Below, piece by piece: positions 1 through 28,596 of a stretch of 28,596 nt of DNA. Where the stretch lies: the IMG/VR virus record IMGVR_UViG_3300047372_000454, positions 1 through 28,596 of that record; one strand, 5' to 3'. The position numbers were made by a program, and so were the translations under genes. The notes under the pieces are model-generated. The model made no database searches. It was not told where the DNA came from and saw only the letters and a program-made list of their open reading frames with translations. This DNA is from a virus. Position 1 is the stretch's first letter. Every line of letters starts with the position of its first letter.

Positions 1-133
1 CACCCCGGATTGCGTCCAGCTTCTCCCATACCGCTGGCGGTAGGTTGATGCTGCTAGTCTTAACAGTGCGGCCCTTGCCGCTGCCCTTGGGCCTTCCAGC
101 CCCCGCTCGTTTTCCTCCGTGTTGTTTCTTCAT
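1..133 (-). CDS. Small basic GRPKG-motif protein, 3' end cut by window edge
   Basis: The ATG is at 133 and the reading frame is still open at base 1, so only 44 N-terminal residues are visible. The start is very basic, with a glycine/arginine stretch (GGKRAGAGRPKG, residues 6-17) of the kind found at the front of small phage and plasmid DNA-binding proteins. A segment starting NLPPAVWEKLDAI follows and looks like the beginning of a ribbon-helix-helix type domain. The ATG lies 1 base past the stop codon of the gene at 135-389, so the two are probably cotranscribed. A DNA-binding or regulatory role is inferred only from the basic motif and the ribbon-helix-helix-like start. Confidence 0.6.
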   Translation of the reverse strand, partial: MKKQHGGKRAGAGRPKGSGKGRTVKTSSINLPPAVWEKLDAIRG

Positions 134-134
134 T

Positions 135-389
135 TTAGTAAATCCTTGCTGATAGCTTAATGACTGGCACTAACTCTTGAAGTGGCTTTTGATTTTGCAC
201 GTCTTGCTCAAGTGCGCTTTGTGCTTCTGCAACCCACCTTGAAACAGGCAGGTGAGTCATAGCTGACACCATGACTGAGTCAGCATTTAATGCACCGTGT
301 GCATTTGTGAAGTAAAAGCAACCGCTTCCGTTGCCGCCTTGTATCTCAAGCTTAAGGTGAGCGATGGCTTTGTTAATTCTTGCTCTCAT
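135..389 (-). CDS. Hypothetical protein, 84 aa
   Basis: I do not recognise this family. The protein is 84 residues long with a basic N-terminus (MRARINKAIAHLKLE), a Gly/Phe/Tyr-rich middle (GGNGSGCFYF) and a helical, Gln/Glu-rich second half. It sits between two other small genes on the same strand with 1- and 5-base gaps, which supports it being a real gene. It lies downstream of the terminator at 705-741, so it belongs to a transcription unit apart from the replication operon. No signal peptide or membrane segment is visible. Confidence 0.6.
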   Translation of the reverse strand: MRARINKAIAHLKLEIQGGNGSGCFYFTNAHGALNADSVMVSAMTHLPVSRWVAEAQSALEQDVQNQKPLQELVPVIKLSARIY

Positions 390-394
390 ATCTG

Positions 395-643
395 TTAATG
401 TGATGCAAATTCAATAGCTCTTTTGCAAGTATCAAAAAAGAAATAGGGGCAGTAATCTGATTGCATATCTGGCAAATCATCTTTTTGCCTGACAGAAAAA
501 TAGTCAACATCCCCATCACAATTGGCTTGGAATTCTATAACGTATTTGCCGAATTCTCTTTCGGCTTTGTAACAGTTCCAAGGTTTGATTCTTACAGCAA
601 AACCTGATTTCTCTAACTTGTTTTTGGCATTCTTTAGTTTCAT
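395..643 (-). CDS. Hypothetical protein, 82 aa
   Basis: The frame stays open upstream to 787, but I chose the ATG at 643 because a longer form would have to be translated through the terminator hairpin at 705-741. The chosen protein begins MKLKNAKNKLEKSGF, is rich in aromatic and acidic residues, and has no membrane segment. The longer form would add a hydrophobic helix, which I regard as an artefact of the T-rich terminator tail. The family is not recognised. It is the first gene after the terminator, so a promoter should lie between 644 and 704. No Shine-Dalgarno sequence precedes the ATG. Confidence 0.6.
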   Translation of the reverse strand: MKLKNAKNKLEKSGFAVRIKPWNCYKAEREFGKYVIEFQANCDGDVDYFSVRQKDDLPDMQSDYCPYFFFDTCKRAIEFASH

Positions 644-652
644 ATCAACGTG

Positions 653-681
653 AATATGGGCTATTTCTTGAATGATGTAAA
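653..681 (-). promoter_or_regulatory. Candidate promoter for the small-gene unit
   Basis: On the minus strand TTTACA (681-676) and CATATT (658-653) are separated by 17 bases, a sigma-70-like arrangement just upstream of the ATG at 643. It lies directly after a terminator, where a new promoter would be needed. The match is modest and the AT-rich sequence makes chance likely. If the host is Bacteroidota, this consensus may not apply. Confidence 0.25.
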
Positions 682-704
682 CCCCTAAAATGAAAATAAT
701 TGCA

Positions 705-741
705 CAAAAAAACGGGGCAGGGAATTTCTCCCCCACCCCGT
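705..741 (-). terminator. Intrinsic terminator after the replication operon
   Basis: On the minus strand ACGGGG...CCCCGT forms a GC-rich stem of about 11 pairs with two G-U wobbles at 741-712. Seven T residues (712-706) follow immediately. It sits 21 bases after the stop codon of the SSB-like gene (762). This is a textbook rho-independent terminator that closes the long replication/recombination operon. Confidence 0.85.
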
Positions 742-761
742 GAATACACACACTTACAAAT

Positions 762-1405: not shown

Positions 1406-2707
1406 TTATGACTCGCGAAAGTAGATTTTGTCTGCATCTCTGACAATTGGTAGCAGCAACCCGGAGCGTCCGGTGTGCCTATCTTTCTTGATTGTGATGC
1501 CTGTGACAGAAAGGTAGTCGTCATCCTTTTCATCCATTTCTTGCACCAGAGAAAGCACGTAGTCAGCATCTTCGTTGATAGACGTAGCATATTTCAAATG
1601 CCCTTCCTTGTTTTGTTGTGACAGCACAAAAATAAGCAAATCTAATTCCTTGGCAATGCCTTGCAAAGCGTGTGAAATCTGAGTCAGTTCCTGTTCCTTG
1701 CTGCTTGCGTCAGCGACTTGAATTAGTTGCAGATAGTCGATTCCGATTACCCTAACGCCGTGGCGTTTATGCGCTCGCCGTATCATCGTAATGATTTGCC
1801 CGATTCGCGGCGAGACTGGCTCTTCAAAATGCAAGGGCATGGCTTTAATGGCCCTGTAAGCCTTTCTGAAGGCACTTAGCTCTTCTTTGGATACAGTTCG
1901 CCTATTTTGCTTCCGGGCGTATGAGAGCGGGTCTGAGAGCAATTCAGACGGTAGTCTGCCATATGTCCCTATGAACCGCTGCATGATTTGCTGGGCAGTC
2001 ATCTCGCAAGAAATCATTAGGCATGGTGTCCCGGTGCTGGCGATGTCGGTCAGGAACTGCCCGGCAAGCAATGTCTTACCGCTTCCGGGGAATCCGGCAA
2101 TAACGCAATACCGTGGCGTTTTAAATCCCCGCAAAGCTGCCGAAAGAGTAGACAGTGAAACTTCAAAACCATTTGGCTCAACTTTGCCATTCACCAAATC
2201 AGCAAATTCATCGGCCACTGCTTTGAGCAATGTTGCCCGGTCTCGGGTCGTCTCAGTGTCGGTTGCTGACTCGGCTACTTCTGTCATAGGTTGCCCGGTT
2301 GCTTCGACGAAGCCTGTTTTGTCGTTCATATCGGCTGCTCGCTCTGCAAGGTTCTCGGCTGCATCAATCGCCAGCCGTCTGCTGTGACAGTCCCGCATGG
2401 CTTCGATGCTTTGCCCGAAGTGGCTAATGCTTGGCGCATTTACTAAAATTTGAGCAATATCAGCCACGCCGTCAGTTCCGTTAATCATGCCGCGCTGCTT
2501 GAGTGCTTCAACGGTCAAGGACAAGTCCCCTTGAACATCAGCCGGGAGCTTGTTGCTCGTTGCAAATTCGTAGAGTCGTCGGTAGTGCTGAGAGTAGAAC
2601 CATTCTGGTTGTATCGGTTTCTCATCCCAGCCGGGTAGTTTCTGCATCACCACGCTGAGAACATATTTTTCAGCTTCTAAAGCTGTCGGTTTTTGAATTT
2701 CATTCAT
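1406..2707 (-). CDS. dnaB: DnaB-family replicative helicase
   Basis: This 433-residue protein is a DnaB-like hexameric helicase that would unwind phage DNA at the fork. The N-terminal region (about 1-130) fits the DnaB primase-binding domain. The RecA-like motor has Walker A GFPGSGKT (205-212), the catalytic Glu in SCEM (E235), Walker B VIGIDY (320-325), the QQ sensor pair (364-365) and a C-terminal KKDRHTG (407-413) that supplies the arginine-finger region. Length is close to bacterial DnaB (about 450-470). Its start overlaps the stop of the initiator-like gene by ATGA, so the two are likely translationally coupled, as expected for an initiator/helicase pair. Confidence 0.93.
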   Translation of the reverse strand: MNEIQKPTALEAEKYVLSVVMQKLPGWDEKPIQPEWFYSQHYRRLYEFATSNKLPADVQGDLSLTVEALKQRGMINGTDGVADIAQILVNAPSISHFGQSIEAMRDCHSRRLAIDAAENLAERAADMNDKTGFVEATGQPMTEVAESATDTETTRDRATLLKAVADEFADLVNGKVEPNGFEVSLSTLSAALRGFKTPRYCVIAGFPGSGKTLLAGQFLTDIASTGTPCLMISCEMTAQQIMQRFIGTYGRLPSELLSDPLSYARKQNRRTVSKEELSAFRKAYRAIKAMPLHFEEPVSPRIGQIITMIRRAHKRHGVRVIGIDYLQLIQVADASSKEQELTQISHALQGIAKELDLLIFVLSQQNKEGHLKYATSINEDADYVLSLVQEMDEKDDDYLSVTGITIKKDRHTGRSGLLLPIVRDADKIYFRES

Positions 2708-3474: not shown

Positions 3475-3480
3475 TCGTTT

Positions 3481-3573: not shown

Positions 3574-4710
3574 TTAACCATCACACCGCTCGCATATCCA
3601 ACCTTGAGTGTGATTGTGGTAAAGATTCACGCCACATTTGCAGACTTTCTGCTCGGTATCAACATAATGCGTCAGCCGGGCAACTTGGCCATTGTCGTAG
3701 CTGTGAATGAATGCTTCCACCGCTTTCGGGCTGCGATAACCCTTTTTTGCATGCCAAGCGTCACTTGCTGACGGGCTGCGAAGATACTCAGCCGTGACTC
3801 CAATGAAGTCCTGCCCAGCCATAAACTTTGCTGTTTGCTTGTGGTGAATGTGATGTAAATAAATGTAGCGGTGGACGCTATTGCTCCACATCTCCGGGCG
3901 TTCTGTAGCCATCAAGAGCGGCGTGTCTGCGATTTTCGCTCCATCGCCGTGGGAAAAGCTTAAAAGGTTTTTGCCGTAAGCGGTGTATTTTCGATGAGCA
4001 ATTGAAACGTCAAAGGTGATGTTTTTGGATTTACGGAAATAAGCTTTGATTGTTTGGGCAAGCATGAAGCCGCTCATAAAGTCATGGTTTGACGGGCAAA
4101 AAATAATCTCAACATCGGCCAACGGTAAACATTTTTCAATTGCTCTGATATACATATCCCGGGCCGCCAAAAAAGCATCATGCCATTTGCCATCCATGTC
4201 TTGGCTGGTGCCGCTAGTGGTAACCGGAGAGCTTGATGAGTCGATGTGAAGGCAATCGTTTCCAATCACAAAGATGATTTTTTCCAACGGAAACCCGGCA
4301 GCTTTTTGAAGGAGTGAATCAATGCCAGAGTCAACAATGCTGACGGCCTTTTTTACATCATAACACTCACCGGATTCATGGTTTACTGCGAGCTTGCCAA
4401 CGTGGATGTCGGACGGGTCAAGGATTAGGCAATGCGGATTCTTGATTTTGCTGCGCTTAATCTTGCGAAACTTTGGCGAGTATCTTTGAACATCCTTGAT
4501 AATAGGGTCAAAGACATCTTCTAATTGCAAGCCGTCAGTTTTGCTGAAAATTGAAAACTTTTCTGATTTATACCAAAAATGCTTTACGTTGGAGAGCGGC
4601 AACCCGGCTTCATCGCATTGGTTTACAAGCTCGCTTGCCACGCCCTTTTTGCGCAGCTGCTTTATTAAAGCATGCTCATCTTCAGTAAGTCTAATTCTTG
4701 GAACACTCAT
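3574..4710 (-). CDS. Calcineurin-like metallophosphatase with C-terminal zinc ribbon
   Basis: The 378-residue protein shows the full signature of the calcineurin-like phosphoesterase fold. This comprises DPSDIH (98-103), GND (150-152), NHD (208-210), SHGDG (253-257) and an HHIHH cluster (286-290), which together bind two metal ions. The first 55 residues (LTEDEHALIKQLRKKG) look like a helix-turn-helix or tether. The C-terminus has a zinc-ribbon pattern CxC (357/359) and CxxC (373/376). I prefer the ATG at 4710 because it overlaps the upstream stop as ATGA; the frame extends to 4740. Its place between the recombination genes and the initiator suggests a DNA-processing nuclease or phosphatase. 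The substrate cannot be told. Confidence 0.8.
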   Translation of the reverse strand: MSVPRIRLTEDEHALIKQLRKKGVASELVNQCDEAGLPLSNVKHFWYKSEKFSIFSKTDGLQLEDVFDPIIKDVQRYSPKFRKIKRSKIKNPHCLILDPSDIHVGKLAVNHESGECYDVKKAVSIVDSGIDSLLQKAAGFPLEKIIFVIGNDCLHIDSSSSPVTTSGTSQDMDGKWHDAFLAARDMYIRAIEKCLPLADVEIIFCPSNHDFMSGFMLAQTIKAYFRKSKNITFDVSIAHRKYTAYGKNLLSFSHGDGAKIADTPLLMATERPEMWSNSVHRYIYLHHIHHKQTAKFMAGQDFIGVTAEYLRSPSASDAWHAKKGYRSPKAVEAFIHSYDNGQVARLTHYVDTEQKVCKCGVNLYHNHTQGWICERCDG

Positions 4711-4997
4711 TCTCTTAGTCGTTTCTGGGTTCGTTCCCAAGCGGGAAAAAATACTTCATCCATGCACCTTACGACGGCTTCCTGCTCGTAATTTTCACAC
4801 CAGCCAACGCCGGAAAGCAATAATGAAGCTTCAAGCATTTCATGCCGCAGAGTTGTCTCTAGCGTCCAGCCCGTGATTTCTTTGCTTAATAAAATAACCC
4901 GGTCGTCATGGCGATACTGGCCAAAGCAGTCGTCTAGCTCTGCACGTTTTATTTTAATGCGCTGGCCAGCGATTAAGACACTTTGCGGGAATGACAT
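4707..4997 (-). CDS. Zincin-like (putative metallopeptidase fold) protein
   Basis: The 96-residue protein has a strand-rich first half (GQRIKIKRAELDDCFGQY, IILL-type strand near 34-38). A helix containing RHEMLEA (51-57) follows, then SGVGW and an acidic helix with EAVVRCMDEVF. This layout matches small phage zincin-like proteins in which a HExxH helix follows a beta sheet. Here the second His of HExxH is replaced by Glu (H52, E53, E56), so activity is doubtful unless metal binding differs. It overlaps the previous gene by 25 bases and the metallophosphatase by ATGA. Role in phage biology unknown. Confidence 0.55.
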   Translation of the reverse strand: MSFPQSVLIAGQRIKIKRAELDDCFGQYRHDDRVILLSKEITGWTLETTLRHEMLEASLLLSGVGWCENYEQEAVVRCMDEVFFPAWERTQKRLRE

Positions 4998-5221
4998 TTT
5001 GAAAATTGGTAATTTTTTAAGCGCGGCTCATGCACCACGTTGATTTGCCGAGCAAGTTCTAGATAGTTTTCATCTGGTAAAACGTGCTTGCGGCACTTGC
5101 ATTCAGCAAAGGTCACACCCGGCTCATATTGTAATTGTGGCTGGCACTTGCACTTGGGGCAATTTGAGACAAGCCACTGAGCTTGGTTGAGTTCATCGTG
5201 ATGTTTAGTTAGTGCGCTCAT
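4973..5221 (-). CDS. Small zinc-binding protein, 82 aa
   Basis: The protein contains CPKCKC (21-26) and, 20 or so residues later, CKC (41-43), consistent with a zinc ribbon. A helical, basic tail with ELARQINVV follows. No catalytic residues are seen. It is coupled to the resolvase gene by an ATGA overlap and itself runs 25 bases into the zincin-like gene. Zinc-ribbon proteins at this position in phage recombination operons are usually nucleic-acid or protein adaptors, but that is a guess. Confidence 0.6.
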   Translation of the reverse strand: MSALTKHHDELNQAQWLVSNCPKCKCQPQLQYEPGVTFAECKCRKHVLPDENYLELARQINVVHEPRLKNYQFSKCHSRKVS

Positions 5222-5700
5222 GCTCGTTGCCAGTGGTGTCTCGCAATTAGGTATGCGTCAATTATGCCATCGTGTGGTTTTTTGGAGCGTTCGCTTCCAA
5301 GCCAGTTTTCATCCGGGCAAAGGCGGCTTGCTTCACGTAGGGCAAAAGCTTTGGTTTCACCCCTTGGCACCTTGCCAAGCATAGCCTTTTGCCATTCCCT
5401 AACTTGCACCCTTACGACTTCCTGCACCCGGCTCTCTGCCATGCCTACGAGCTTACCGAATGACAAGGCCATTGAACGCACTGCTGCACTACTTTTAGCG
5501 TGCGGCAGCGGTTCTTCAATGGCTAAGATGTAAGGTGAATGAAGGTCACACAGCCAACGGTAGACGGCCAGCGAGTCGACTTCCCGCTTCTTGCCCACCT
5601 TTTTGGTCGGCATTTTGATGCGGTCAATCAAATCACCGTTGTGGGTTGAGATTGCTGCCAACCCGCCGTCTAGGCCGTTGTCTATGCCTACAATTATCAT
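5218..5700 (-). CDS. RuvC-like Holliday junction resolvase
   Basis: The 160-residue protein has the RNase H-like fold signature of RuvC-type resolvases. It starts IIVGIDNGLDGGLA with the first catalytic Asp (D7), continues with AIEEP (E62) and ends with DGIIDAYLIA (D144 and D148). Length fits RuvC (about 170). It would resolve recombination or replication branches before packaging. It follows the ERF/exonuclease genes, overlapping the winged-helix gene by ATGA, and is coupled to the zinc-ribbon gene the same way. Confidence 0.85.
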   Translation of the reverse strand: MIIVGIDNGLDGGLAAISTHNGDLIDRIKMPTKKVGKKREVDSLAVYRWLCDLHSPYILAIEEPLPHAKSSAAVRSMALSFGKLVGMAESRVQEVVRVQVREWQKAMLGKVPRGETKAFALREASRLCPDENWLGSERSKKPHDGIIDAYLIARHHWQRA

Positions 5701-6014
5701 TTCAGCTTATCGGCTAATGCTAAACCGTCAGCGGTTGGGTGATAGGTTAGGAAGCCACCATTAACGGTTGATTGAACTCTCTTGTGTTTAATTAAACCCA
5801 ATGCAGTGCAGCGTTTAATGGTTGCCCTTACTGTCTCATTTTCGACTTTGCAAACATCGGCCAACTCAGCGGTTGAGATGCCCGGTTGGATGCAAACGGT
5901 TATAATGATTCGGGCTTGTCTAAGTGTTCTAATGCCGTGCTGCTCAAGCAGTGTAAAGTTGAGCAACGTCCGAAAGCGAACGTCTTGCTGGAATGGGTTA
6001 AACATCGTCTTCAT
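5697..6014 (-). CDS. Winged helix-turn-helix protein
   Basis: The 105-residue protein has a MarR/Lrp-like winged-helix layout: helix TLRQARIIITVC, HTH segment ISTAELADVCKVENETVRATIKRC (45-68), then LGLIKHK and a wing with NGGFLTYHPT. It is probably a DNA-binding regulator of this operon or a structural partner in recombination. Two in-frame ATGs exist, at 6014 and 6005. Both overlap the end of the exonuclease gene, so the exact start is open. It ends with an ATGA overlap on the resolvase. Confidence 0.7.
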   Translation of the reverse strand: MKTMFNPFQQDVRFRTLLNFTLLEQHGIRTLRQARIIITVCIQPGISTAELADVCKVENETVRATIKRCTALGLIKHKRVQSTVNGGFLTYHPTADGLALADKLK

Positions 6015-6846
6015 CTTGCATCGATGCCCAAACCGGGCGATTTAAAATTGGTGTTTCGTTCTCTGCTAGCATTGGCCAATAGTCTTCCTGAGCGGCGTGC
6101 TTGAGTTTGCCGAGCAATCTAAGGGCAGTTTTTAGCCCTGCCGCAATTTCGTCCCGGTGCAACTCAGTCACGCAAACTTCATAAGGTGGCTGGCTCGACT
6201 GCCAGACAATCTTGAAACGCTGCCGGGTGTCTTCCGGGTGTGTTGAGTTCCAGAGTGCTAGATAAAGCCCGGCTTGAACGTGATAACCGAAATTTGCAAT
6301 CGCCTTGCTGAATCCTTCAAGCGTGAAGTCCATGCCTGTGGTTTTCAAATCAACAAGGTAATCTTTGCCAACTGGAGCAAGGTCAACTAGCCCTTTAAAT
6401 TGAACGCCGGAAATCTTCGCGCCAATGATGACTTGTTTTAGACTGCCATCAAATATTTCAGCAGATTGAACATTGGTCTGCATTAGCATCTCCGATGCCT
6501 TTACGCCTTCATCAAATTGCTGCTGAGTGATTATTGTCTTTCCAACTGCAAGCTGCTCATCACGCCATTCCTTGGCTTCCTTTGTGCGGTAGCTTGAGAA
6601 AGGTGAAACTCTTATCTCTTCTTCTACAAGCTCCGGCGTAGTGGTTAAGCAGTCCACCAAGCTGCCCCACTGCATCGCTGGAGTCGGTGAAAACTCCCGT
6701 GGATGGAATCGCCATTTGAACAAGCTTGAACTGTTAAGCTCCCAGAGAACTGATTTTGAAAGATATGACTCCGGCGCAAATATGTCGGCCCGGTTGCATT
6801 TGAGCAGTGTGTGATAGTCGGCACTGCTTACTTCGTGAATCTTCAT
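5998..6846 (-). CDS. PD-(D/E)XK exonuclease (RecE/YqaJ/DUF3799-like)
   Basis: The 282-residue protein carries the PD-(D/E)XK core: WGSLVDCL (60-67, the usual G..H/D helix), KGLVDLAP with D155, then LVDLKTT with D166 and K168, and the helix YHVQAGLYL (188-196) with the YxxQ motif typical of RecB/RecE-type nucleases. The N-terminal segment SVLWELNSSSLFKWR is the family's usual SP-rich entry. It would resect double-strand ends to give single strands for the annealing protein. The ERF gene directly precedes it, with an ATGA overlap, so the pair forms a Red-like two-component recombination system. Confidence 0.85.
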   Translation of the reverse strand: MKIHEVSSADYHTLLKCNRADIFAPESYLSKSVLWELNSSSLFKWRFHPREFSPTPAMQWGSLVDCLTTTPELVEEEIRVSPFSSYRTKEAKEWRDEQLAVGKTIITQQQFDEGVKASEMLMQTNVQSAEIFDGSLKQVIIGAKISGVQFKGLVDLAPVGKDYLVDLKTTGMDFTLEGFSKAIANFGYHVQAGLYLALWNSTHPEDTRQRFKIVWQSSQPPYEVCVTELHRDEIAAGLKTALRLLGKLKHAAQEDYWPMLAENETPILNRPVWASMQDEDDV

Positions 6847-7424
6847 TGCAGTGGTTCAATTGTGTTTTGAATTTTGCTTTCAAGCACCGTCTTTGCCTTA
6901 ACAAAATCGATTTTTGGAACGTCCTTAATTAAATCAACTCCAAGCCACTTCAAGAATTTGTCCTTGTCTGAGCCTGTCTGAGTTATTAGGGCTTCCAGCT
7001 TCTTAGCTTGTGCCGCTGTAATTGTCTGCACGGTGTGCCGCGCTTGGTGGCTGTCGCTGTCTTCACTAGCGTCAAGGCATAGAAGCCCGGCAAGGGCATA
7101 TTTTCTAGCGTAAGATGATGCAGAGCCTGATATTTGCTCCATGCTCATTCCCTTTCTTGAAGAGTCTAGTTCGGCGTAGCCTGTGCTTGCTAGTGCAGTC
7201 TCACCGTCTGAAATAGTCGCCGTTGCTTTCACAAATAAACGGCCATCAACTTCATGCAAGTCGTCACTAATGTTTAAGAGTAGCTTGTGCTTTTCAAGCA
7301 ATGGCTTGGCCGCTTGGGTAATGTCTTCAACATTGCGGTAGTTGAATTTGGCAAAACTATTTTTTCGCCCTTTCGGTGTTTTTAATTCAGCAATTAATGC
7401 AATTGCGTTTTTTGGTGTTTTCAT
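6843..7424 (-). CDS. erf: ERF-family single-strand annealing protein
   Basis: The 193-residue protein has the ERF hallmark GSASSYARKYALAGLLCLD (100-118) followed by an acidic S/D patch (EDSDS). The N-terminal FAKFNYRNVEDI strand is the usual beginning of the domain. ERF proteins anneal complementary single strands and promote circularisation of phage DNA. The C-terminal part (135-190) is a helical KKLEALI domain like that of other ERFs, likely for partner or SSB contacts. It is coupled by ATGA to the exonuclease downstream and to the 50-residue membrane protein upstream. Confidence 0.9.
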   Translation of the reverse strand: MKTPKNAIALIAELKTPKGRKNSFAKFNYRNVEDITQAAKPLLEKHKLLLNISDDLHEVDGRLFVKATATISDGETALASTGYAELDSSRKGMSMEQISGSASSYARKYALAGLLCLDASEDSDSHQARHTVQTITAAQAKKLEALITQTGSDKDKFLKWLGVDLIKDVPKIDFVKAKTVLESKIQNTIEPLQ

Positions 7425-8077: not shown

Positions 8078-8695
8078 TTAAGCCGCAAAATAATTCTTGA
8101 GTGCATCAGCGTAAACTTCCGCAAGCACTTCCTGATTGCCGTCAAACAACACCCATTCACCCGGGTTGCTGCCAAAGAACGGCTCACAGATGATGGCAGT
8201 TGGCTCGGTCTTTACTAAGAACTTGTAGCCACGCTCACCCACCCGCACCATCTTGGCTCCCCGGTTGTTCTGGGCAGGGATTGACTGCTCATGTTGGTCG
8301 GCAAATGCTTTTGCTAACTTCTCTCCGGTCTCGCTGCCGTGATAATAGAGATACTCAAATCCTTTTGCACTTGAACTTGTGTAGCTGTTAAAGTGTAGCT
8401 CAAGGGCAACATCAAATCCCCAAGTTCTTTCCCGCACCCAGTCCATGCTCTTACCGTAAGTCTTAAACGGATAATCATTAATGACTTCGGAAGCTATCCC
8501 GCGCTCTTTCAGCTTCTCGTTTAAAAATATGGCAACGGCGTTGTTAAATTCCCACTCGCTAACTCCACCCACGCTCTTGGCACCGCTATCGTTAATTCGG
8601 CTATGACCTACGCAGATGGCGACTTTCCTGACTGGCTCGGGCTTTGGCTCACTTTTAAAAAACAAGGCAAGCAGTTTTTGAAGAAAAGATTTCAT
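8078..8695 (-). CDS. N-acetylmuramoyl-L-alanine amidase (Amidase_3), endolysin
   Basis: The 205-residue protein shows the zinc amidase pattern: GHS with H31, an acidic EWEFN segment (E47/E49), ELHFNS with H101, and the catalytic Glu in ICEPFF (E171). It would cut the peptide stem from peptidoglycan to release progeny. The N-terminal FLQKLLALFF stretch (4-13) is a short hydrophobic segment, perhaps a signal-arrest or membrane anchor, followed by a KPEPEP-type linker. It is coupled by ATGA to the lipoprotein upstream and ends the lysis cassette. Confidence 0.88.
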   Translation of the reverse strand: MKSFLQKLLALFFKSEPKPEPVRKVAICVGHSRINDSGAKSVGGVSEWEFNNAVAIFLNEKLKERGIASEVINDYPFKTYGKSMDWVRERTWGFDVALELHFNSYTSSSAKGFEYLYYHGSETGEKLAKAFADQHEQSIPAQNNRGAKMVRVGERGYKFLVKTEPTAIICEPFFGSNPGEWVLFDGNQEVLAEVYADALKNYFAA

Positions 8696-10017: not shown

Positions 10018-12633
10018 TTAAAGTGTTACGTTGTTCACGATGATGCTCCAGCCTTTGGCTTTGAGTGATGTTACTGCGGCGTTCGTCGCGGCGGTTAGTG
10101 AGCCAGTGGCTGTATTGTAGTCGATGTCGATGCCAGCGTCAGCCAAAGCAGTTCCACCAGATGCTCCGGTAGACGTTGCGTATTGGCCTGATGCGTCGAT
10201 GGATGTCAGTATGTTCTCGACCGATTGTGCGGTGAGTGACGTGCAGAAAAGCCAAGTTTCATGGAACACTTGATTACTAATTGAATCAGGATTCCAGTCT
10301 TTTAAGACATCATATGAAAAATCAGTTAAACTAAAACAAGCAAGCCAAGTTTTGTAAAAAGATGACCCATTTCTTAAAGGTGTACTAAATGACGTTAAAT
10401 CTGTAGTAATGAAAGCTTCACCAAAATTAACATTACTAGCATTTGTCCCGAGTTTTGCATTTTCAGAAAACTGCGTTAGCTGAGAGTCATGCCAAGCCGC
10501 AAAGAAATTTGTTCCCGTGCTCAAGTCTAAAGCAGGGAAACTTGTGAGTCCACTTGACCGCCATGCGCTCGTAAAGTTCACATTGCTTGCCGCCGTGCCG
10601 AGCTTTGCGCCAGCCGGAAATGACGTTAGGGCCGAGCAGTTTTGCCATGCGGACGTAAAGTTGGTGCAATTAGGAATCTCTGTCGTCCTAAAATCTGTAA
10701 GTGCGAGGCAGTAATTCCAAGCAAGACTAACGTCGGTAGCAGATGAAAGTCCGGGGGCATTAAAAGAAACTAGTCCGTAGCAATTTCTCCAAGCATTTCC
10801 AAAATCTGTTGCTCCCGTAAAATCTACGGCATTAAACTCAGTAATATCAAATCGTTGAAACCAAGCGTTGTTATAACTACTAGCTGTTGCTGCATCTGAC
10901 GCGCCTCTATCTATTAACAATTTCCTCGCCGACTCAATGTCAGCACCTGTTGCCGAATCTGGTAAAAGTAGCATTCCGTAAGAATCTCCGACTGACCTGT
11001 GACTGCCAGCGTTACCCAAAAGATTCAGCTCAGTGACCGCAGTGTTGTTCACGCGATACGCAAAGGTTCCGAGTGACGTGCCGACGATTTGCCAGCCTGC
11101 TTGGGTTGTCGATGGGATGTCTAGGTGGTCAGTGTTGTCTGCGAAGGTTACCTTGAATCCATCTGAGACAGGTTGGTCGTTAGAGGTGGATTGGGTGGCT
11201 TCGATTGATGCACTGTCTCCGTTGTCGCTTCCAACAATCCGACCGCTCCAAGCATTAGAGCCTGATGAAATCGCTCCGACTGGTGCTTTCTGTGCATCGT
11301 AGAAGTAGTATCCAAAGCCGTCCTTTAGGTCAAACACGTTGTTCCTATTATTAATATAATTACGAACGTCGTCAGCTTGGTCGTCGGTGATGGACGCAGG
11401 GAAGAGCGCAAGGAACTCTAGGTCAAACGCTGTGTTAAGTCCATTAGTAACTCGCTCGGCTATACTAAACTCTTCCGAGTTTATTGTTGTAGTTGCGCTA
11501 GAAGAAAGCAGGTCGGCGTTGTTAATCTTTGAGATTTGAGAACCAGACTTAAATTTTACTTCGTGAAGAATATCACGATTTGAATCATCAAACAATCCTG
11601 TGTGGTCAAGCGCAACGTTTGAATTAAAAGACTGTAGTCGCTCTGAGTTTCTGTGAGTAATCGCATAACCGTCAGTTGAAATTGTAGAACCTCCGGTGGA
11701 GTTTAATCCAAAGCAGGTTGCGAATTGCTCGCCGCCTCCCCCGAGGACACTAAAGGTCAAGAACGCATACCCTTCTGTCACTGTTGTCCCAAGCAATCCT
11801 TTGAGATTGTCGTTTACACCATCGAAGCGTAAGACGCTTTTTTTAATAATGGTGGCCACATCGTTCGATGAGCTTGAGTCTTGGTTGATTGTAACAATCT
11901 GGCCAGTCGCGCATTTGAACTTGGTGTCACCGTGCCTAATGCTTGTTGACCCGTTGAAATCACAATCGAATACGACCGCATTGTTGACCGTGAGCTTGGC
12001 CTTTTGAATCGCGTAGTTGCCTAAAGCGGACAAATTGTTTTGCTGGTTTAATTGAATTGTTTGAGTAAGTATTGCTGCTTGACTTGGGGCCGTGGTTGAA
12101 AATTTCCTTACGCCGTCAATGTCCACATAAACATCAGTTCCATCGTATCCGTATTTCACGTTAAATGGAGTGCCTAATGTCACTCCGCTAGGCTGTGGGC
12201 CTAATCCGGGGCCTGCCTTACTTAAAACCAAAACGCCACCAGACGTGTTTTCAAATATAAGTCCAAAACCACTTGACCAAAAGCCACCGCCCATCGGCAC
12301 AATATAATTACCAAACTGAGTAATCACCATGTCTAGCTCACCTTGCCAAGTCTCGTTGGAGCCAATGGTAACACTTGGCCCAGTCGCGTAGTTGCCTGAG
12401 ACGTTCGGAATGTAAAGATAACCACCAAGGTTGCCCGCTGGATTTTTGATTAATGGTAAGGCTCGTGGCTGGTTTAGGCTTACTGATTGCTTGGCATCGC
12501 CGCCCTTTTGTGAACCGCGAGCCAAGTTGCGTAACACTGGGACGTTCTCAAGGAAGTCAGCGGTCGTCAGGGCTTCTGCTAGAACGTCACCAGATGTCGC
12601 GCTGGAAGTCAGTGTGGATAGATTGAGTGCCAT
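10018..12633 (-). CDS. Receptor-binding-type fibre protein with lectin-like and BspA-like repeats
   Basis: This 871-residue protein is the largest product in the window. Residues about 90-240 look like a concanavalin-type lectin fold (TWQGELDMVITQFGNY, VKYGYDGTDVYVDIDGV). Another strand-rich LamG-like region lies at about 265-435 (LRFDGVNDNL ... LALFPASITDDQ). From about 585 to 800 there are repeated units of roughly 20-25 residues with an F..AW..C..LTSFP pattern, matching BspA/DUF285-type leucine-rich surface repeats. The end is SLKAKGWSIIVNNVTL. Position after the tape measure and before the lysis genes fits a host-recognition fibre. The middle of the repeat coding region is more AT-rich than its flanks, which may signal modular exchange. 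Confidence 0.7.
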   Translation of the reverse strand: MALNLSTLTSSATSGDVLAEALTTADFLENVPVLRNLARGSQKGGDAKQSVSLNQPRALPLIKNPAGNLGGYLYIPNVSGNYATGPSVTIGSNETWQGELDMVITQFGNYIVPMGGGFWSSGFGLIFENTSGGVLVLSKAGPGLGPQPSGVTLGTPFNVKYGYDGTDVYVDIDGVRKFSTTAPSQAAILTQTIQLNQQNNLSALGNYAIQKAKLTVNNAVVFDCDFNGSTSIRHGDTKFKCATGQIVTINQDSSSSNDVATIIKKSVLRFDGVNDNLKGLLGTTVTEGYAFLTFSVLGGGGEQFATCFGLNSTGGSTISTDGYAITHRNSERLQSFNSNVALDHTGLFDDSNRDILHEVKFKSGSQISKINNADLLSSSATTTINSEEFSIAERVTNGLNTAFDLEFLALFPASITDDQADDVRNYINNRNNVFDLKDGFGYYFYDAQKAPVGAISSGSNAWSGRIVGSDNGDSASIEATQSTSNDQPVSDGFKVTFADNTDHLDIPSTTQAGWQIVGTSLGTFAYRVNNTAVTELNLLGNAGSHRSVGDSYGMLLLPDSATGADIESARKLLIDRGASDAATASSYNNAWFQRFDITEFNAVDFTGATDFGNAWRNCYGLVSFNAPGLSSATDVSLAWNYCLALTDFRTTEIPNCTNFTSAWQNCSALTSFPAGAKLGTAASNVNFTSAWRSSGLTSFPALDLSTGTNFFAAWHDSQLTQFSENAKLGTNASNVNFGEAFITTDLTSFSTPLRNGSSFYKTWLACFSLTDFSYDVLKDWNPDSISNQVFHETWLFCTSLTAQSVENILTSIDASGQYATSTGASGGTALADAGIDIDYNTATGSLTAATNAAVTSLKAKGWSIIVNNVTL

Positions 12634-23070: not shown

Positions 23071-24957
23071 TTATGCACCCAGTGCGTCAAGCATTGCTGC
23101 GAACGACTTAGGACGGCGAACACCACCATCATAGTAGGTGTTAGCAACCAAGGTGTGCAATCCAGTCTTGGCGTTAGCACTGTCGCGGAGAAGCTCAAGG
23201 TTGAGTCCACCCCAGTAGCCAATCACATAGTCAGCAAAGTTACCGAAGAAGATTGCAGATGCAACTGATGAACTTCCTTTGGTCAATGTGCGGCTAACAG
23301 CGTTGGTGAACTCAGCGCGGTATCCGTTGATGACACCCGGGCTTCCATCAGAGATGATGAAGTTGCCTTCAACTCCAGAAGTCTGCTTGCTGGTCTGCTT
23401 GAGTTTCGCACGGATTTGGCCGTTTGTAACATAAGCGAGTCCACCTTGCAGAGCATTCTGAGCGTCAACCTTCTCTTCAAGAGCAACGATGTCAGCATAG
23501 TCAGGAGCGGCTCCGTTAGTTCCACCAACAACAGAACCAATTCCAGAAGCTCCAGCAACGCCGTTTGCTTCGTTGGTTCCACCGCCGTGGAAGAATGCCT
23601 TCTCTTGAGTCTCAAGCATCTGAGCAGTCAGGTGTCCGCGAAGCATTGCTTCAATTGCGGAAGACGACTGGCTCAAAAGCTGGTCACTGATGTCGATGAA
23701 TGCAGGAAGTCGCTTGGGAGTAAGGCTCAACTGTGAAGTGGTTGGGCTAACTTCGTCGGCTGCTGCGTTCTCGGCTTTTTTAGCGGCTGCTGTTCCGGCT
23801 GCAAGAATCGGAATGTCAAGGTTGCCAGAAAGTCCGGTGAGAACCGTAGCACCAAGCTGATTCATTACTGATGAAGCAAAGAAGTCATCAAGAAGACCAG
23901 CTTTGTCAGTTGCGATTGTGTTACCGCCTTGGTTGGCAGTTCCTGCGGTCATGTCACGCTTGTTGACGTAGAACGAAGGAAGCATGATGCCACGAGACTG
24001 ACCGATGCCAGCGTTCTTAGCTTCACGAATTCCTTCTTCAACAATCTCACGCTCGGCACCGTCCAGCTTTGCACCAGAGTAGTGAGCGCGAAGAGCGGTT
24101 CCAAGGTCGAAACGGCCAAGGTCACGCTTTTCAGACTTGGAAAGGTCGGCTGGGACAAACTCAGCTTTCTTTTCGCAAACTTTGTCGAATGCAGCCTGAC
24201 GGAAATCGTCAGCAGATACGCCTTCAGCAACAGCTTTGCTTACATCAAGGCTGATGCCGCGCTCTTTAGCTTGCTCGGCTACTGCTTGGATGTTTGCAAT
24301 GCGGCTGCGCTCGGCAGAAACAGCACTGTGACGCTCTGCGTTGATGTCAACACGGGGAGCTTCGTTGATAACCTCCACGGAGCGTTGCTCAGGAGCCGAT
24401 GGGATGTCTTTATTTTCGGACATATTTTCAGTTTTTAAATTTTGGTTTTCCGTTGTTTTGTTTTCCATTCCCCTGCCAACTCCCACGGAGTCGTCGGCTG
24501 GAATGCTCACCAAGCTGAGTTCATATGGCTCCCAATCAGTTGCCCGGATAGACTCCCGTCCCCCGTCCATCTTTTCAGAATCCATTTCGTGGATTCGATA
24601 GCCGACAGAAACCAATCGCCGAATGCCATCTTTCACGTCTTGGAAAATCTCTTCGGCTCTTGCCGATTTTGAAAACTTAACGACTGCACGTCCTTTTTTG
24701 TCGTCGTCAATCCATGCCCGCTCTACAACACCAATCTGGTCGTTGCGGTTGTGTTCCATCAGGAAAGCCCCGCCGTTGTTTAGACGGTCAAGGCGAACGC
24801 TTTTAGAGCGATGGTCTAGCACTTCAGTGCCATATCCGCGCTCAACTTCAGCTTCAGAAGAAAACGCAATTTCAATCGTGCGGTCGTCTTCGTTGATTGC
24901 CCGTTGATTTAACTCAAACGAGCGGTGTGACAGTTCTTCAACCTTCTTCTGGCTCAT
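23071..24957 (-). CDS. Fused HK97-type prohead protease and major capsid protein
   Basis: The 628-residue protein joins two normally separate products. Residues about 1-160 are an S78/U35-type prohead protease, with GGAFLMEHN (catalytic H69) and RLVSVGY (catalytic S117), and the closing ELSLVSIPADD. A linker with NKTTENQNLKTEN leads into a coiled scaffold-like segment (about 200-300). The HK97-type capsid domain occupies about 330-628 (LDIPILAAG, IDISDQLLSQSS, FFGNFADYVIGYWGG). In-frame ATGs at residues 164 and 179 could start a capsid-only product. The gene starts 20 bases inside the portal gene; I chose the ATG at 24957 over a TTG at 24978. Fusions of this type are known in other phages. 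Confidence 0.88.
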   Translation of the reverse strand: MSQKKVEELSHRSFELNQRAINEDDRTIEIAFSSEAEVERGYGTEVLDHRSKSVRLDRLNNGGAFLMEHNRNDQIGVVERAWIDDDKKGRAVVKFSKSARAEEIFQDVKDGIRRLVSVGYRIHEMDSEKMDGGRESIRATDWEPYELSLVSIPADDSVGVGRGMENKTTENQNLKTENMSENKDIPSAPEQRSVEVINEAPRVDINAERHSAVSAERSRIANIQAVAEQAKERGISLDVSKAVAEGVSADDFRQAAFDKVCEKKAEFVPADLSKSEKRDLGRFDLGTALRAHYSGAKLDGAEREIVEEGIREAKNAGIGQSRGIMLPSFYVNKRDMTAGTANQGGNTIATDKAGLLDDFFASSVMNQLGATVLTGLSGNLDIPILAAGTAAAKKAENAAADEVSPTTSQLSLTPKRLPAFIDISDQLLSQSSSAIEAMLRGHLTAQMLETQEKAFFHGGGTNEANGVAGASGIGSVVGGTNGAAPDYADIVALEEKVDAQNALQGGLAYVTNGQIRAKLKQTSKQTSGVEGNFIISDGSPGVINGYRAEFTNAVSRTLTKGSSSVASAIFFGNFADYVIGYWGGLNLELLRDSANAKTGLHTLVANTYYDGGVRRPKSFAAMLDALGA

Positions 24958-26377
24958 CGACAATCTCAGAATTGTCAATTTGGTCAGGGTCTAATTTTAA
25001 GCCATAACTTGCAGCAAGCTCTTCGTCTTCTTTAACTTTGGCAAGAACGTCATAGATGTCATCCCCGGCATCAGCAATAATGTCACGAAGTGGTCTGATG
25101 CGGTTACGCATTGCAAGGACAGCGGCTTCCATGTCTTTCTTGGGGTCAACCCAAGCCCATCGGCGTCCCCGGAATTCTGGGGCGTTAAATTTAAAGAACT
25201 TATCGAATGGCAAACCAAGGCGACCAGAAAGAAGCTCGACTTCAAGCCATGCTTCAAAAACTGGCTCAAGAACGTGGTCAATCATCATGCGTTGAACTGC
25301 CTTCCAGACTTCGCGCTCTTCAATTAGCCCGGCTCTGATGCTTGAGTAGTTTACTCCTTCCAAGTCATTACTAAGAGCGTTGTAACTAATGCCAAGAGAA
25401 GTAGCGACTCCACGAAGGCAAGATTTGACGAAATCTCCATAACCAGAATTTGGGTGGTTGGTGTCCCAACTTTTAAAATCTACACCAGCAGGAAGTTCTT
25501 CGATTGTTCCCGGCGATGAATCAACAGGAAGATTTCCATCATCATCAATTTCGCCCGTCCAGCCGTCCGGTGTTGCTTTGGTGAAAAAGCCCATTTTAGC
25601 GGCCCCGGTTCTAGCTGCAACAAGTTCGGCTTCTGCATAGCCGTCTAACATCTTGAGCCTGTTCATTGAACTAACAAGCCAAGGAATGCCACGGCTTTGC
25701 TCTGGTCTCTCAGTCTTAAACGGGTGAATGATTTCTTCGGCTGGCACTCTGATGCGACGCTTGAAATCAGCGTTGAATTGAGAATCTCCGGGGTGGTTGC
25801 CAAGCAAGTGGTAAGCAACTGGTCGGCGGTATGAATCAAACTCAACACCAAACCGGATTTCGTTACCGTTTTCAGCCCGGGCGTTGTAACTATCATCAAG
25901 CAGGTCGGCTTCAAGAATCTGCAAGCATAACCCGGTGCTTTTCTTAATCATGCGAATAAGAACTTCACCATCACGGGCAATGCATCGAAGGATTAAGCGT
26001 TGCACATCAACCCATGAGTGCCGCCCTGTAACTTCACAGTTGCCAACCTTGCTCCACTGTTTCCAAGCCCGCTCAATGATATTGTTTGCAACTTCGTCAA
26101 GCTGTCCACTCGGCTCTTTAGCTCTCACCTGTAAAGACACACCCTTCTCGCCGAGCGTGTTGTTTTCAAGGCTACGCAAAAAACCTTTTACCCATTCATT
26201 GTTGCGTTCTAAGTCACGCGAGCGGTCACGAAGAATTGGAAGCTGGCCTTTAAGCTCACCATCTTGCGATAGGCAGGCAGTAATCCAGTCGAGCGTCAGA
26301 CGGCTTGACTGGGTTGCGTTAAATCTGCGAACGGCTGTTTTGGGCGATGAGAATTTGCGCTTTAGATATTGAATCAT
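24938..26377 (-). CDS. Portal protein (lambda gpB family)
   Basis: The 479-residue protein forms the dodecameric ring at the DNA entry vertex. Lambda-family portal features are the N-terminal RRFNATQSSRLTLDWITA, the RDRSRDLERNNEWVKGFLRSLENN segment, LQVRAKE, and central DGEVLIRMIKK and LLDDSYNARAENGNEIRFGVEFDSYRRPVAYHLL. I place the start at the ATG at 26377, which overlaps the gpW-like stop as ATGA; the frame extends to 26449 without better signals. Gene order (terminase, gpW-like, portal, protease/capsid) is that of lambda A-W-B-C/E. Confidence 0.9.
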   Translation of the reverse strand: MIQYLKRKFSSPKTAVRRFNATQSSRLTLDWITACLSQDGELKGQLPILRDRSRDLERNNEWVKGFLRSLENNTLGEKGVSLQVRAKEPSGQLDEVANNIIERAWKQWSKVGNCEVTGRHSWVDVQRLILRCIARDGEVLIRMIKKSTGLCLQILEADLLDDSYNARAENGNEIRFGVEFDSYRRPVAYHLLGNHPGDSQFNADFKRRIRVPAEEIIHPFKTERPEQSRGIPWLVSSMNRLKMLDGYAEAELVAARTGAAKMGFFTKATPDGWTGEIDDDGNLPVDSSPGTIEELPAGVDFKSWDTNHPNSGYGDFVKSCLRGVATSLGISYNALSNDLEGVNYSSIRAGLIEEREVWKAVQRMMIDHVLEPVFEAWLEVELLSGRLGLPFDKFFKFNAPEFRGRRWAWVDPKKDMEAAVLAMRNRIRPLRDIIADAGDDIYDVLAKVKEDEELAASYGLKLDPDQIDNSEIVDEPEEG

Positions 26378-26616
26378 CTGAATTGAATTTTCAAAGTTTT
26401 TCGGTGACGGTTGACTGATGCCTTTAATGTTTCCGCTTCTTGTCTCCAACGGTCACGGCTCTTTTCCAAATCAGCGATGCTTGCGAGTGTCAAAGATTGG
26501 TCGCCAAAACTTGTAGCACTAGCCGTCTTTTCATAAAGAGTTCCAAGAGTAGTTTCTATCTTGGTAATCATCGCCAACGCTGATGTCAGCTTTTCTTCGT
26601 CAGTTTTGTCGGCCAT
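26374..26616 (-). CDS. gpW-like head-tail joining protein
   Basis: The 80-residue protein fits the small proteins encoded between the large terminase and portal in lambda-type phages. Those have a helix, a TSFGDQSLTLASIADLE segment (36-52, the beta hairpin of gpW) and a long charged helix (RDRWRQEAETLKAS). Lambda gpW is 68 residues. It starts 23 bases after the terminase stop, with a TTTGAC/GTCAAA inverted repeat in between, and is coupled to the portal by ATGA. Confidence 0.75.
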   Translation of the reverse strand: MADKTDEEKLTSALAMITKIETTLGTLYEKTASATSFGDQSLTLASIADLEKSRDRWRQEAETLKASVNRHRKTLKIQFR

Positions 26617-26639
26617 TGAATTTTGACTAATGTCAAACT

Positions 26640-28463
26640 CTACCAGTCATTCACCCAGCCGCCTTTCTTTTTGCGGGCATTCTTTTTTGGTTTTGCGGCT
26701 TTTTTCTTTGGCGGGTCTTGGATGCTTTGCTTGAGTTTGTCCCAGTTCACGCGCATCAATGACAGCGCGGCGGTTGCATAGACTCGGATGTCTAAAGCTT
26801 CGTTTCTTGCTTTGCTTGGATTCTCAAAACGTGTGTATGGCACGCCATTTTTGTAGCGGGTCACCTTTGTTTCACTAACAAGCTGCCGAAACCAATCTTC
26901 TGGTCGGTCGTTGGGGAAGTGCATAAATCCACTACCCTTTTCGCCAAGCGAAAGTCTAGAGTAAGTCAATTCCTTAGCCGTGTCAGTTCCAACGCTAAAC
27001 AGCGCAGCTCTCTCTGCTCCCCTTCTTGTTGGTCTGCCAACTAACGGCACACCCGGGCCACCCATACCTTTGCAAGCGTAAACTCTTCGGCCTTCTCTTG
27101 GTTTTGTAAATGAGTAAACGGCTTTTGTTTTGTGTCCTGAGTCAATAAACGTGCAAGTGATTGGCAGCTCCACCCCGCTTGGGTGTGTAAACTTCTTTTG
27201 CAGAATCTCATCAAGAGCGGCTTGCGTGTCTGGCGAGTTAAAATCACCCATGACGTTGTAATGGTCAATGCTCCAAGACTCTTCCCCTTCTCCCCAGCCA
27301 ACAATCTCGACTTCAAAGCGGTCACCTTGAATATCAACGCCAGCGGTAAGGATAAGCGCATCTTTCGGGAAATCACCCCAATCTTCCCGGCGTTGCATAA
27401 GTGGCTCCCACGCTACGCTTTCGCCTTCATCTTCCCAAGTTTCAGCTAAAAACGTGTTTATCCACGTCCTAAGCGTCTCTTTTCCTGATTTTTTGGCTCT
27501 GATATTGTCGGCAGCCATCTGGTGCAATCGCGATTTATAACCCTTTTTGTGCCGAAAAAGTGATGCAATTCCGGGCAAATGATAGCCCCGGCTGGTGCGT
27601 TCCGGGTAGGTTGCCACCCATTTCCCTGCTTTGACCATCTCAATCCGCTGCTCATCAGTCAGCTTTGCCTTGCAACCTTCACATTGCAGCCATGCATCAC
27701 TGCCGTCTTCTGCTTTCCATTGGACATTGACCCATTTTAAGCTTTGAGAGTAGCCGCATTCTGGGCAATCAACGTGAAATCTTCGCTGGTCGCTTGCTTC
27801 AAATTCAGTCTCGACTCTGCTCCGGCCTTTTACGGTCGGCGTTGATGTCATCACAATGACAGCGTTCCAGAATGTCTCTGTTCGTCGAATAGCTAAGCTT
27901 GACGGGTCGCCTTCACTTCCTGCTGTGACTGGGTAGCGGTCAACTTCGTCCAATAAAACAACCCGCCTTGGACGTGACGCCAAGCCAGCCGGGGCATTAG
28001 CTCCAGCAATCGCCAAGTTTCCACCCGGAAAGGTTTTGTGCAGAATTGTGTTGCCACTAGTTCGCGATTTTACGTCTGCAATCTTGTCCTTAATTCTAGG
28101 CGTGTCCCGGCACATCGGTGCAAGTCGTTCTTTGCTCCACGCTTCACCCATCTCAATCGTCGGCTGTACCATCAGCATCGGTGACGGCTCGACATCGACA
28201 AAATATCCAATCATGTTGTTTAGAACTTCAGTCTTTCCTAATTGCGCCCCCACCATCAGCACAGTCCCAGTTGCTTCCGGGTCATTGATTGAGTCCATCC
28301 ATTCGCGAGCATATGGCGTTAGGTCAGAAGAATACTTTCCCGGCTGCCCTGATGACTCAGGCGAGAGAAAACGGTACTTATCAGCCCACTCTGAGACTGT
28401 TACTCTTGGCGGCGGTTCACAAACCGAAAGCCATGATTGAATGATTTTCTCAACCTTGCTCAC
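26640..28463 (-). CDS. Terminase large subunit (lambda gpA / GpA family)
   Basis: The 607-residue protein packages DNA using an ATPase and cuts concatemers with a nuclease. The ATPase Walker A-like site is VGAQLGKTE (71-79) and Walker B is VVLLDEVDRYP (168-178). A zinc-binding insert has CPEC (233-236) and CEGC (261-264). The nuclease starts at GVDIQGDRFE (D377). The C-terminus is lysine-rich (KKKAAKPKKNARKKKGG), possibly for DNA or portal contacts. The start is a GTG at 28463, with AAAGGA just upstream, and overlaps the previous gene. GpA-type enzymes usually cut at cos sites, so the phage is probably a cos packager. Confidence 0.93.
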   Translation of the reverse strand: MSKVEKIIQSWLSVCEPPPRVTVSEWADKYRFLSPESSGQPGKYSSDLTPYAREWMDSINDPEATGTVLMVGAQLGKTEVLNNMIGYFVDVEPSPMLMVQPTIEMGEAWSKERLAPMCRDTPRIKDKIADVKSRTSGNTILHKTFPGGNLAIAGANAPAGLASRPRRVVLLDEVDRYPVTAGSEGDPSSLAIRRTETFWNAVIVMTSTPTVKGRSRVETEFEASDQRRFHVDCPECGYSQSLKWVNVQWKAEDGSDAWLQCEGCKAKLTDEQRIEMVKAGKWVATYPERTSRGYHLPGIASLFRHKKGYKSRLHQMAADNIRAKKSGKETLRTWINTFLAETWEDEGESVAWEPLMQRREDWGDFPKDALILTAGVDIQGDRFEVEIVGWGEGEESWSIDHYNVMGDFNSPDTQAALDEILQKKFTHPSGVELPITCTFIDSGHKTKAVYSFTKPREGRRVYACKGMGGPGVPLVGRPTRRGAERAALFSVGTDTAKELTYSRLSLGEKGSGFMHFPNDRPEDWFRQLVSETKVTRYKNGVPYTRFENPSKARNEALDIRVYATAALSLMRVNWDKLKQSIQDPPKKKAAKPKKNARKKKGGWVNDW

Positions 28464-28596
28464 TCAATCCTTTTATTTTGATTTTTAAACCTGATAGGTT
28501 TTTTAAACATTTATCTTTTGCTTCATCGGTCACTGCATCATTTAGAATTGCGTTTTTTATTGCCGCCATGATTTCTTGACCAGCCCTTTCCACATC
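28450..28596 (-). CDS. C-terminal part of a small gene before the terminase, 5' end cut
   Basis: The frame is open at the window edge and runs 48 codons to a stop at 28450, overlapping the GTG of the terminase by 14 bases. The visible residues are charged and helical (AGQEIMAAIKNAILNDAVTD, CLKNLSGLKIKIKG). This is the position of the small terminase subunit in lambda-type phages, but nothing specific can be recognised from the fragment. Confidence 0.45.
   Translation of the reverse strand, partial: DVERAGQEIMAAIKNAILNDAVTDEAKDKCLKNLSGLKIKIKGLSEQG

What the first reader, a model, noticed from the sequence alone, without database searches (positions are those of the whole stretch)
1..28596. 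GATC appears to be completely absent from the whole window
I read every line for GAT followed by C and found none, including across line breaks. From base composition near 45% GC, about 100 occurrences would be expected, and GATC is palindromic so both strands are covered. Complete loss of one tetramer points to strong selection by a host restriction system that cuts GATC (MboI/Sau3AI/DpnII type) or by methyl-directed systems acting on it. Nearby palindromes such as CCGG, GGCC, GTAC and CATG are present, so this is specific. I found no methylase or anti-restriction gene here, so avoidance would be the phage's defence.
Basis: partly seen in the sequence, partly recalled or inferred. Interest (0 to 1): 0.8.

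Follow-up and report, generated by a model that had tools for sequence, protein, structure and literature searches.

The report
Marine phage purged of GATC sites
A nearly complete marine bacteriophage genome, probably of a Verrucomicrobia host, contains not one GATC although about 80-110 are expected; relatives show that the site was selected away, most likely to escape a host restriction enzyme, which is a known kind of defence seen here in unusually clean form.

Summary
GATC occurs 0 times in 28,596 bases (80-109 expected). It is avoided by synonymous codon choice (0 against 83 in codon shuffles) and no other tetramer is absent, although GTAC (4), CCWGG (1) and GGWCC (4) are also strongly depleted. 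Twenty close IMG/VR relatives (226 kb, about 857 expected) also have none. Outgroup and some sister phages have normal or raised GATC. Mosaic relatives carry GATC mainly where a segment is foreign to the GATC-free backbone. So it is real, heritable and selected. The best explanation is a host Type II restriction system cutting GATC. The host is probably a Verrucomicrobiota bacterium of the Opitutae (only two genome-collection TerL matches exceed 44%, both MAGs of that phylum); GATC restriction genes occur in about 9 of 273 genomes of that order. No specific host is identified. Phage site avoidance is known; this is a new member.

The parts
1..28596 (.). Whole window: zero GATC; near-complete siphophage-type genome (contig ends fall beside the ParB/modification-gene slot and inside TerS)
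   Evidence: G000 is a linear virus record
28464..28596 (-). 3' end of the terminase small subunit gene, cut by the contig end; the DNA-modification slot (ParB-like plus Mom, methylase or TAGT in relatives) lies just beyond it
   Evidence: window 28498-28596 matches L188 14849-14947 at 98%; TerS ORFs
26640..28463 (-). Terminase large subunit (phrog_15)
   Evidence: PHROGs E 2e-241; used for the tree
26374..26616 (-). Small conserved gene between terminase and portal (94-100% in most close relatives)
24938..26449 (-). Portal protein
   Evidence: PHROGs E 5e-97
23071..24978 (-). Major head protein with protease region
   Evidence: PHROGs E 4e-119
15517..17343 (-). Tape measure protein
   Evidence: PHROGs E 2e-22
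10018..12633 (-). Large protein in the tail region, fast-diverging (37-78% identity in relatives); function not tested
8078..8695 (-). Endolysin
   Evidence: PHROGs E 4e-33
6843..7424 (-). Erf-like ssDNA annealing protein
   Evidence: PHROGs E 6e-36
5998..6846 (-). Exonuclease VIII-like; with Erf a recombination pair that could explain the mosaicism
   Evidence: PHROGs E 4e-45
5218..5700 (-). RuvC-like Holliday junction resolvase
   Evidence: PHROGs E 4e-15
3574..4740 (-). DNA repair exonuclease family protein
   Evidence: PHROGs E 5e-70
1406..2707 (-). DnaB-like replicative helicase
   Evidence: PHROGs E 2e-54; 100% identical in L188
1..11543 (.). Stretch 100% identical to IMGVR_UViG_3300048130_000175 (L188), which continues beyond window base 1 into HNH-like, ParB-like, Mom and TerS genes
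   Evidence: blastn; Mom PF25680 E 1.8e-54

Best explanation
The window is most of a roughly 32-kb, apparently non-temperate tailed phage of a marine bacterium, probably a Verrucomicrobiota of the Opitutae. Its lineage replicated for a long time in hosts with a Type II restriction system whose endonuclease (DpnII/MboI or Sau3AI type) cuts unmethylated GATC. Genomes that had lost a site survived better, so GATC was removed, mostly by synonymous or conservative changes (GATC to GGTC, AATC or GATT as read on the + strand), until none remained. Avoidance works together with an exchangeable DNA-modification gene next to the terminase (a Mom-family gene in a contig identical over 11.5 kb), which presumably protects other sites. 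Shown: the absence, its codon-level and clade-level character, its loss relative to GATC-bearing relatives, the mosaic pattern, and the modification slot. Inferred: the host, the responsible nuclease, and the protective role of Mom.
For: Zero GATC against 80-109 expected and 83 in synonymous shuffles. Of 47 GATC sites in aligned DNA of the 79%-identical relative G012, 0 are kept in the window, while tetramers as a whole are kept at 39%; likewise 0 of 34 (G009), 0 of 23 (G032) and 0 of 49 (G027). Twenty close relatives, 226 kb from many metagenomes, all have zero; GATC-bearing phages come from some of the same metagenomes, e.g. 3300017737: L008 0, L074 33. In mosaic relatives GATC density is 0.12/kb where identity to the GATC-free clade is 95% or more and 2.9-4.3/kb where it is under 80% or absent. 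The strongly depleted short words (GATC, GTAC, CCWGG, GGWCC) are all restriction-type words. The only TerL matches above 44% found in a scan of 84,980 species genomes are two Verrucomicrobiota MAGs (79% and 66%); MAG G036 holds two contigs of a related phage. In 273 genomes of that order, 6 carry DpnII-family genes, at least two of them beside DpnA-type methylases and one also beside a Dam-family methylase. Three carry MutH/Sau3AI-family proteins, one of them below the family's score cut-off, each with a DpnA-type methylase nearby judged by motif. GANTC is at its expected number, so CcrM-type hosts are unlikely, whereas Roseobacter phage CRP-823 has GANTC 0 and raised GATC. Literature: GATC under-represented in all 46 phages whose hosts encode a GATC enzyme (PMC6286503).
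Against: No host genome is identified; the Verrucomicrobiota link rests on two metagenome bins. GATC restriction genes occur in only about 3% of the sampled order. Phages with a GATC-bearing block (11-18 sites) in an otherwise nearly GATC-free background exist, so the selection is not absolute or those phages have other hosts. No GATC cleavage or methylation has been measured.
Confidence: 0.68

Rival explanations
1. GATC was counter-selected by a host Dam/MutHLS mismatch-repair (and SeqA) apparatus acting on under-methylated phage DNA, as proposed for enterobacteriophages and phiX174.
For: Known precedent for complete GATC absence in phiX174 (PMC5014478). CCWGG, the Dcm word of E. coli, is also depleted.
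Against: Needs a gammaproteobacterial Dam/MutH host; the host evidence points to Verrucomicrobiota. MutH-family hits occur in only 3 of 273 genomes of that order and sit near DpnA-type methylases, i.e. look like restriction genes. GATC-normal sisters have 90% identical TerL, which would require a jump between repair systems.
Confidence: 0.1
2. The pressure comes from an enzyme that cuts methylated GATC (DpnI type, or another methyl-directed nuclease): phages methylated in one host are destroyed in the next, so losing the site removes both problems.
For: Works on the same word. The order has many D12 (Dam-family) methylases, 57 of 273 genomes, so hosts that methylate GATC may be common, although specificity was not tested.
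Against: DpnI-family genes were not searched for; no direct evidence.
Confidence: 0.12
3. The phage itself makes a GATC-cutting nuclease (for example the HNH-like protein next to the modification slot) that degrades host DNA, and its own genome avoids the word.
For: An HNH-like protein is encoded beyond the window edge (L188 11989-12960; assigned by motif only, no Pfam hit).
Against: That gene holds the single GATC of L188; a homologue (52%) is present in G009, which has 77 GATCs; the GATC-free contig L005 has a different gene there.
Confidence: 0.04
4. Artefact or mutational bias: library preparation with a GATC enzyme, or drift in composition.
For: None beyond the possibility that a library method depletes GATC-containing molecules.
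Against: Same metagenomes yield GATC-bearing contigs; sites are avoided in a context-specific way by synonymous codons; 0 of 47 sites kept against 39% for other words.
Confidence: 0.01

Closest known systems
Restriction-site avoidance in phages (survey: Rusinov et al. 2018, PMC6286503)
   Same: Near-complete loss of an orthodox Type II palindrome in an apparently non-temperate dsDNA phage; GATC is under-represented in all 46 surveyed phages whose hosts carry a GATC enzyme.
   Different: Uncultured marine phage clade with inferred Verrucomicrobiota host; several lineages and recombinants are seen, so gain and loss can be read from mosaics.
GANTC depletion in pelagiphages following phylogeny (PMC9516812)
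   Same: Marine phage clade in which a methylation word is absent in some subclades and present in others.
   Different: Word is GATC, host not SAR11; GANTC is at expectation here.
GATC absence in phiX174 and enterobacteriophages (PMC5014478; Deschavanne and Radman 1991 as cited there)
   Same: Complete absence of GATC.
   Different: There attributed to Dam/MutH mismatch repair; that system looks absent in the inferred host order.
Phage Mu Mom (PMC12707154) and 936-type lactococcal phage methylases (PMC4190342, abstract only)
   Same: Phage-encoded DNA modification against restriction; Mom family (PF25680) and acquired methylases.
   Different: Here the modification gene varies between close relatives in one slot beside the terminase and coexists with site avoidance.

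Membership tests
Restriction-site avoidance (GATC) by a dsDNA phage | Significant under-representation of the recognition word after correcting for composition | tested here: met
   0 against 80-109; z -12
Restriction-site avoidance (GATC) by a dsDNA phage | Avoidance reached by codon choice, not by protein composition | tested here: met
   0 against 83 in synonymous shuffles; GAT 0/70 before C; ATC 0/94 after G
Restriction-site avoidance (GATC) by a dsDNA phage | Relatives without the pressure keep the word | tested here: met
   Outgroups and some sisters at or above expectation
Restriction-site avoidance (GATC) by a dsDNA phage | Host encodes an enzyme that cuts the word | tested here: inconclusive
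   About 9 of 273 genomes of the inferred host order carry DpnII or MutH/Sau3AI-family genes; actual host unknown
Restriction-site avoidance (GATC) by a dsDNA phage | Non-temperate life style | tested here: inconclusive
   No integrase among the ten PHROGs-annotated proteins, but not every gene was searched
Dam/MutH-driven GATC counter-selection | Host has Dam, MutH and MutL/S methyl-directed repair | tested here: inconclusive
   MutH-family in 3 of 273 genomes of the inferred order, near DpnA-type methylases: not met for the order as sampled, but the actual host is not known
Mom-type DNA modification system | Protein of the Mom family encoded | tested here: met
   PF25680 E 1.8e-54 in L188, which is 100% identical to window 1-11543 but joins the window's TerS end at 98%; so met for a near-identical phage, likely for the window's own
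Mom-type DNA modification system | Modified adenine in phage DNA | not testable with these tools
   Needs mass spectrometry or long-read modification data

The most novel reading that the evidence does not exclude
In this phage group site avoidance and DNA hypermodification trade off: recombinants that picked up the TAGT-ParB-TerS-TerL block carry GATCs in that block while the rest of the genome is nearly GATC-free, which would fit a new modification (without any known TET partner) that makes GATC harmless, so that the removed word can start to return.
Probability: 0.15. Interest if true: 0.6.

Novelty: new member of a known kind. Interest (0 to 1): 0.4.

Why it matters
It confirms a raw-sequence reading and gives a clean case of complete restriction-word removal in a phage clade whose host is probably an uncultured marine verrucomicrobium. 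The mosaics should make the strength of the selection measurable. It predicts a GATC restriction system in the host and so offers a handle for linking phage and host. It also suggests that avoidance and exchangeable DNA modification are used together.

Tried and rejected
GATC-specific phage methylase as an explanation: no PF05869 Dam-type gene in any of 36 records; D12 methylases over the cut-off only in the more distant L023/L043; cassette methylases have no assignable specificity. A fixed link between cassette type and GATC: GATC is zero with Mom, two ParB-methylases and MT-A70 alike, and present with TAGT and two other methylases, and G009 has 77 GATCs with a 99% identical Mom, so the cassette does not determine it. 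Mu Mom's known target context (from memory, not looked up) as the reason why GATC must be avoided: not supported, since CCWGG and GGWCC, partly in that context, are also depleted. Host by CRISPR or shared DNA in 246 Opitutales genomes: only short or low-complexity matches except the G036 phage contigs. One or several losses (window clade against G030/L039): shared replacements 16 of 31 against about 40% background identity, undecided. No tRNA genes to help with the host.

Full report
Check of the observation. GATC occurs 0 times in the 28,596-base window. Expectations are 79.6 (sd 8.2) in dinucleotide shuffles, 86.9 from the trinucleotides (z -12, lowest of all 256 tetramers) and 109 from base composition. 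It is not a by-product of the proteins: when synonymous codons are shuffled, 83.4 GATCs appear on average in the coding regions (minimum 58 in 300 shuffles), against 0. Aspartate is never written GAT before a C (0 of 70; 239 of 481 elsewhere), and isoleucine never ATC after a G (0 of 94; 155 of 439 elsewhere). Among other words GTAC (4), CCWGG (1) and GGWCC (4) are strongly reduced, as are many 6-bp palindromes.

What it is. The window is a linear IMG/VR virus record with terminase, portal, major head protein, tape measure, DnaB-like helicase, Erf and exonuclease VIII, RuvC-like resolvase and endolysin. No integrase is among the proteins searched, and no tRNA genes were found. Its nearest cultured relatives are Roseobacter phages CRP-82x, with only 48% identical TerL.

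Relatives. A TerL search of IMG/VR gave 80 loci from 100% to 44% identity. With head-protein, helicase and TerS searches, 20 close relatives (TerL 97% or more, or the matching head genes), together 226 kb, have no GATC where composition predicts about 857 (my sum of the rows). G030 and L039 (TerL 88%) also have none (63 and 18 expected). Sisters with 90% TerL (L016-L018) have more than expected, and the outgroups, including the two found in Verrucomicrobiota MAGs, have about 1-2 times the expected number. Metagenome 3300017737 yields both a GATC-free contig and a GATC-bearing one, which argues strongly against a library artefact.

Selection shown in alignments. In DNA aligned with G012 (79% identity) the relative has 47 GATCs and the window keeps none, whereas tetramers as a whole are kept in 39% of cases. 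The same holds for G009 (34 to 0), G032 (23 to 0), G027 (49 to 0) and L187 (31 to 0). The usual replacements on the + strand are GGTC, AATC and GATT.

Mosaics. Relatives with a reduced GATC count look like recombinants. In G031, GATCs are mainly in the TerL-TerS-TAGT-ParB block and in a few accessory genes, while the other core genes examined have none. In G009, G031, L191 and L014 taken together GATC density rises as similarity to the GATC-free clade falls: 0.12 per kb at 95% identity or more, 0.31, 0.65 and 0.96 in the middle classes, 2.9 below 80% and 4.3 in DNA with no match. The one GATC in L188 is in an HNH-like gene. The natural reading is that foreign DNA brings the word in and selection removes it.

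The missing piece. L188 (14,947 bases) is 100% identical to window 1-11543 and runs on through a 130-aa gene, an HNH-like gene (motif only), a ParB-like gene and a Mom-family gene (PF25680, E 1.8e-54) into TerS, meeting the window's other end at 98%. The window therefore lacks about 3.4 kb, including a DNA-modification gene. Because the TerS ends differ slightly, the window's own cassette is likely but not certainly Mom. In relatives the slot holds ParB-methylase fusions (G001, L012, L018), an MT-A70-like gene (assigned by motif; L008), a second Mom plus a PAPS-reductase-like gene (assigned by eye, no Pfam hit; L033), TAGT glycosyltransferases (L020, L014) or another methylase (L017). GATC is zero with Mom, MT-A70 and two methylase types alike, and G009 carries 77 GATCs with a 99% identical Mom, so the cassette does not set the GATC content.

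Host. In the scan of 84,980 species genomes the only TerL matches above 44% were two Verrucomicrobiota MAGs, 79% (Opitutae) and 66%; the Opitutae MAG G036 has two contigs of a related phage. Metagenome bins can be wrong, so this is moderate evidence. GANTC is at expectation (121), which argues against alphaproteobacteria with CcrM; CRP-823, a Roseobacter phage, has none. In 273 genomes of that order, 6 have DpnII-family genes. G119 has a complete Dam-DpnII-DpnA-type operon and G144 a DpnII gene beside a DpnA-type methylase. Three have MutH/Sau3AI-family proteins, one of them below the cut-off, all with a DpnA-type methylase nearby by motif. Enzymes with the right specificity thus appear to exist in the host group, while a MutH mismatch-repair system does not.

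Mechanism and rivals. Best: purging by a host GATC-cutting Type II restriction enzyme (0.68). Rivals: methylated-GATC-cutting enzymes (0.12), Dam/MutH repair (0.1), a phage nuclease (0.04), artefact (0.01). In a published survey all 46 phages whose hosts encode a GATC enzyme under-use GATC, and phages with hydroxymethylated cytosine do not avoid sites (PMC6286503). GATC absence in phiX174 (PMC5014478) and GANTC loss in some pelagiphages (PMC9516812) are the closest cases.

Verdict. Observation confirmed, interpretation partly supported, novelty modest: a new member of a known kind, with unusually informative mosaics.

Noticed in passing
L118 (Opitutae MAG G036, contig C76): The TerL gene has an in-frame insert of about 380 aa just after the Walker A lysine that looks like an intein.
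   Followed up: partly
G131, contig C1, 4494975-4603955: Four TerL copies at an exact spacing of 35,720 bases in one Opitutales genome: a tandem prophage array or an assembly artefact.
   Followed up: no
L081 (Roseobacter phage CRP-823): GANTC is completely absent in 29.3 kb while GATC is above expectation, as expected for a phage of CcrM-bearing hosts.
   Followed up: partly
L053, L054, L055, L076: CATG is completely absent (0 of 42, 25, 57 and 29 expected) in more distant relatives: another complete word loss.
   Followed up: no
L001-L043 and window: GTAC is depleted in GATC-free and GATC-normal members alike, so a second restriction-type word is avoided family-wide.
   Followed up: partly
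1-28596: GAGG and CCTC (together 33 against about 100 by Markov) are depleted, perhaps an asymmetric Type IIS word such as MnlI's CCTC.
   Followed up: no
8692-8998: Two overlapping ORFs in different frames next to the endolysin, one with an LPSC lipobox-like motif: a nested spanin pair is possible.
   Followed up: no
L020 831-1721, L014 705-1421: TAGT (TET-associated glycosyltransferase) genes in the modification slot; no TET gene was noticed nearby.
   Followed up: partly
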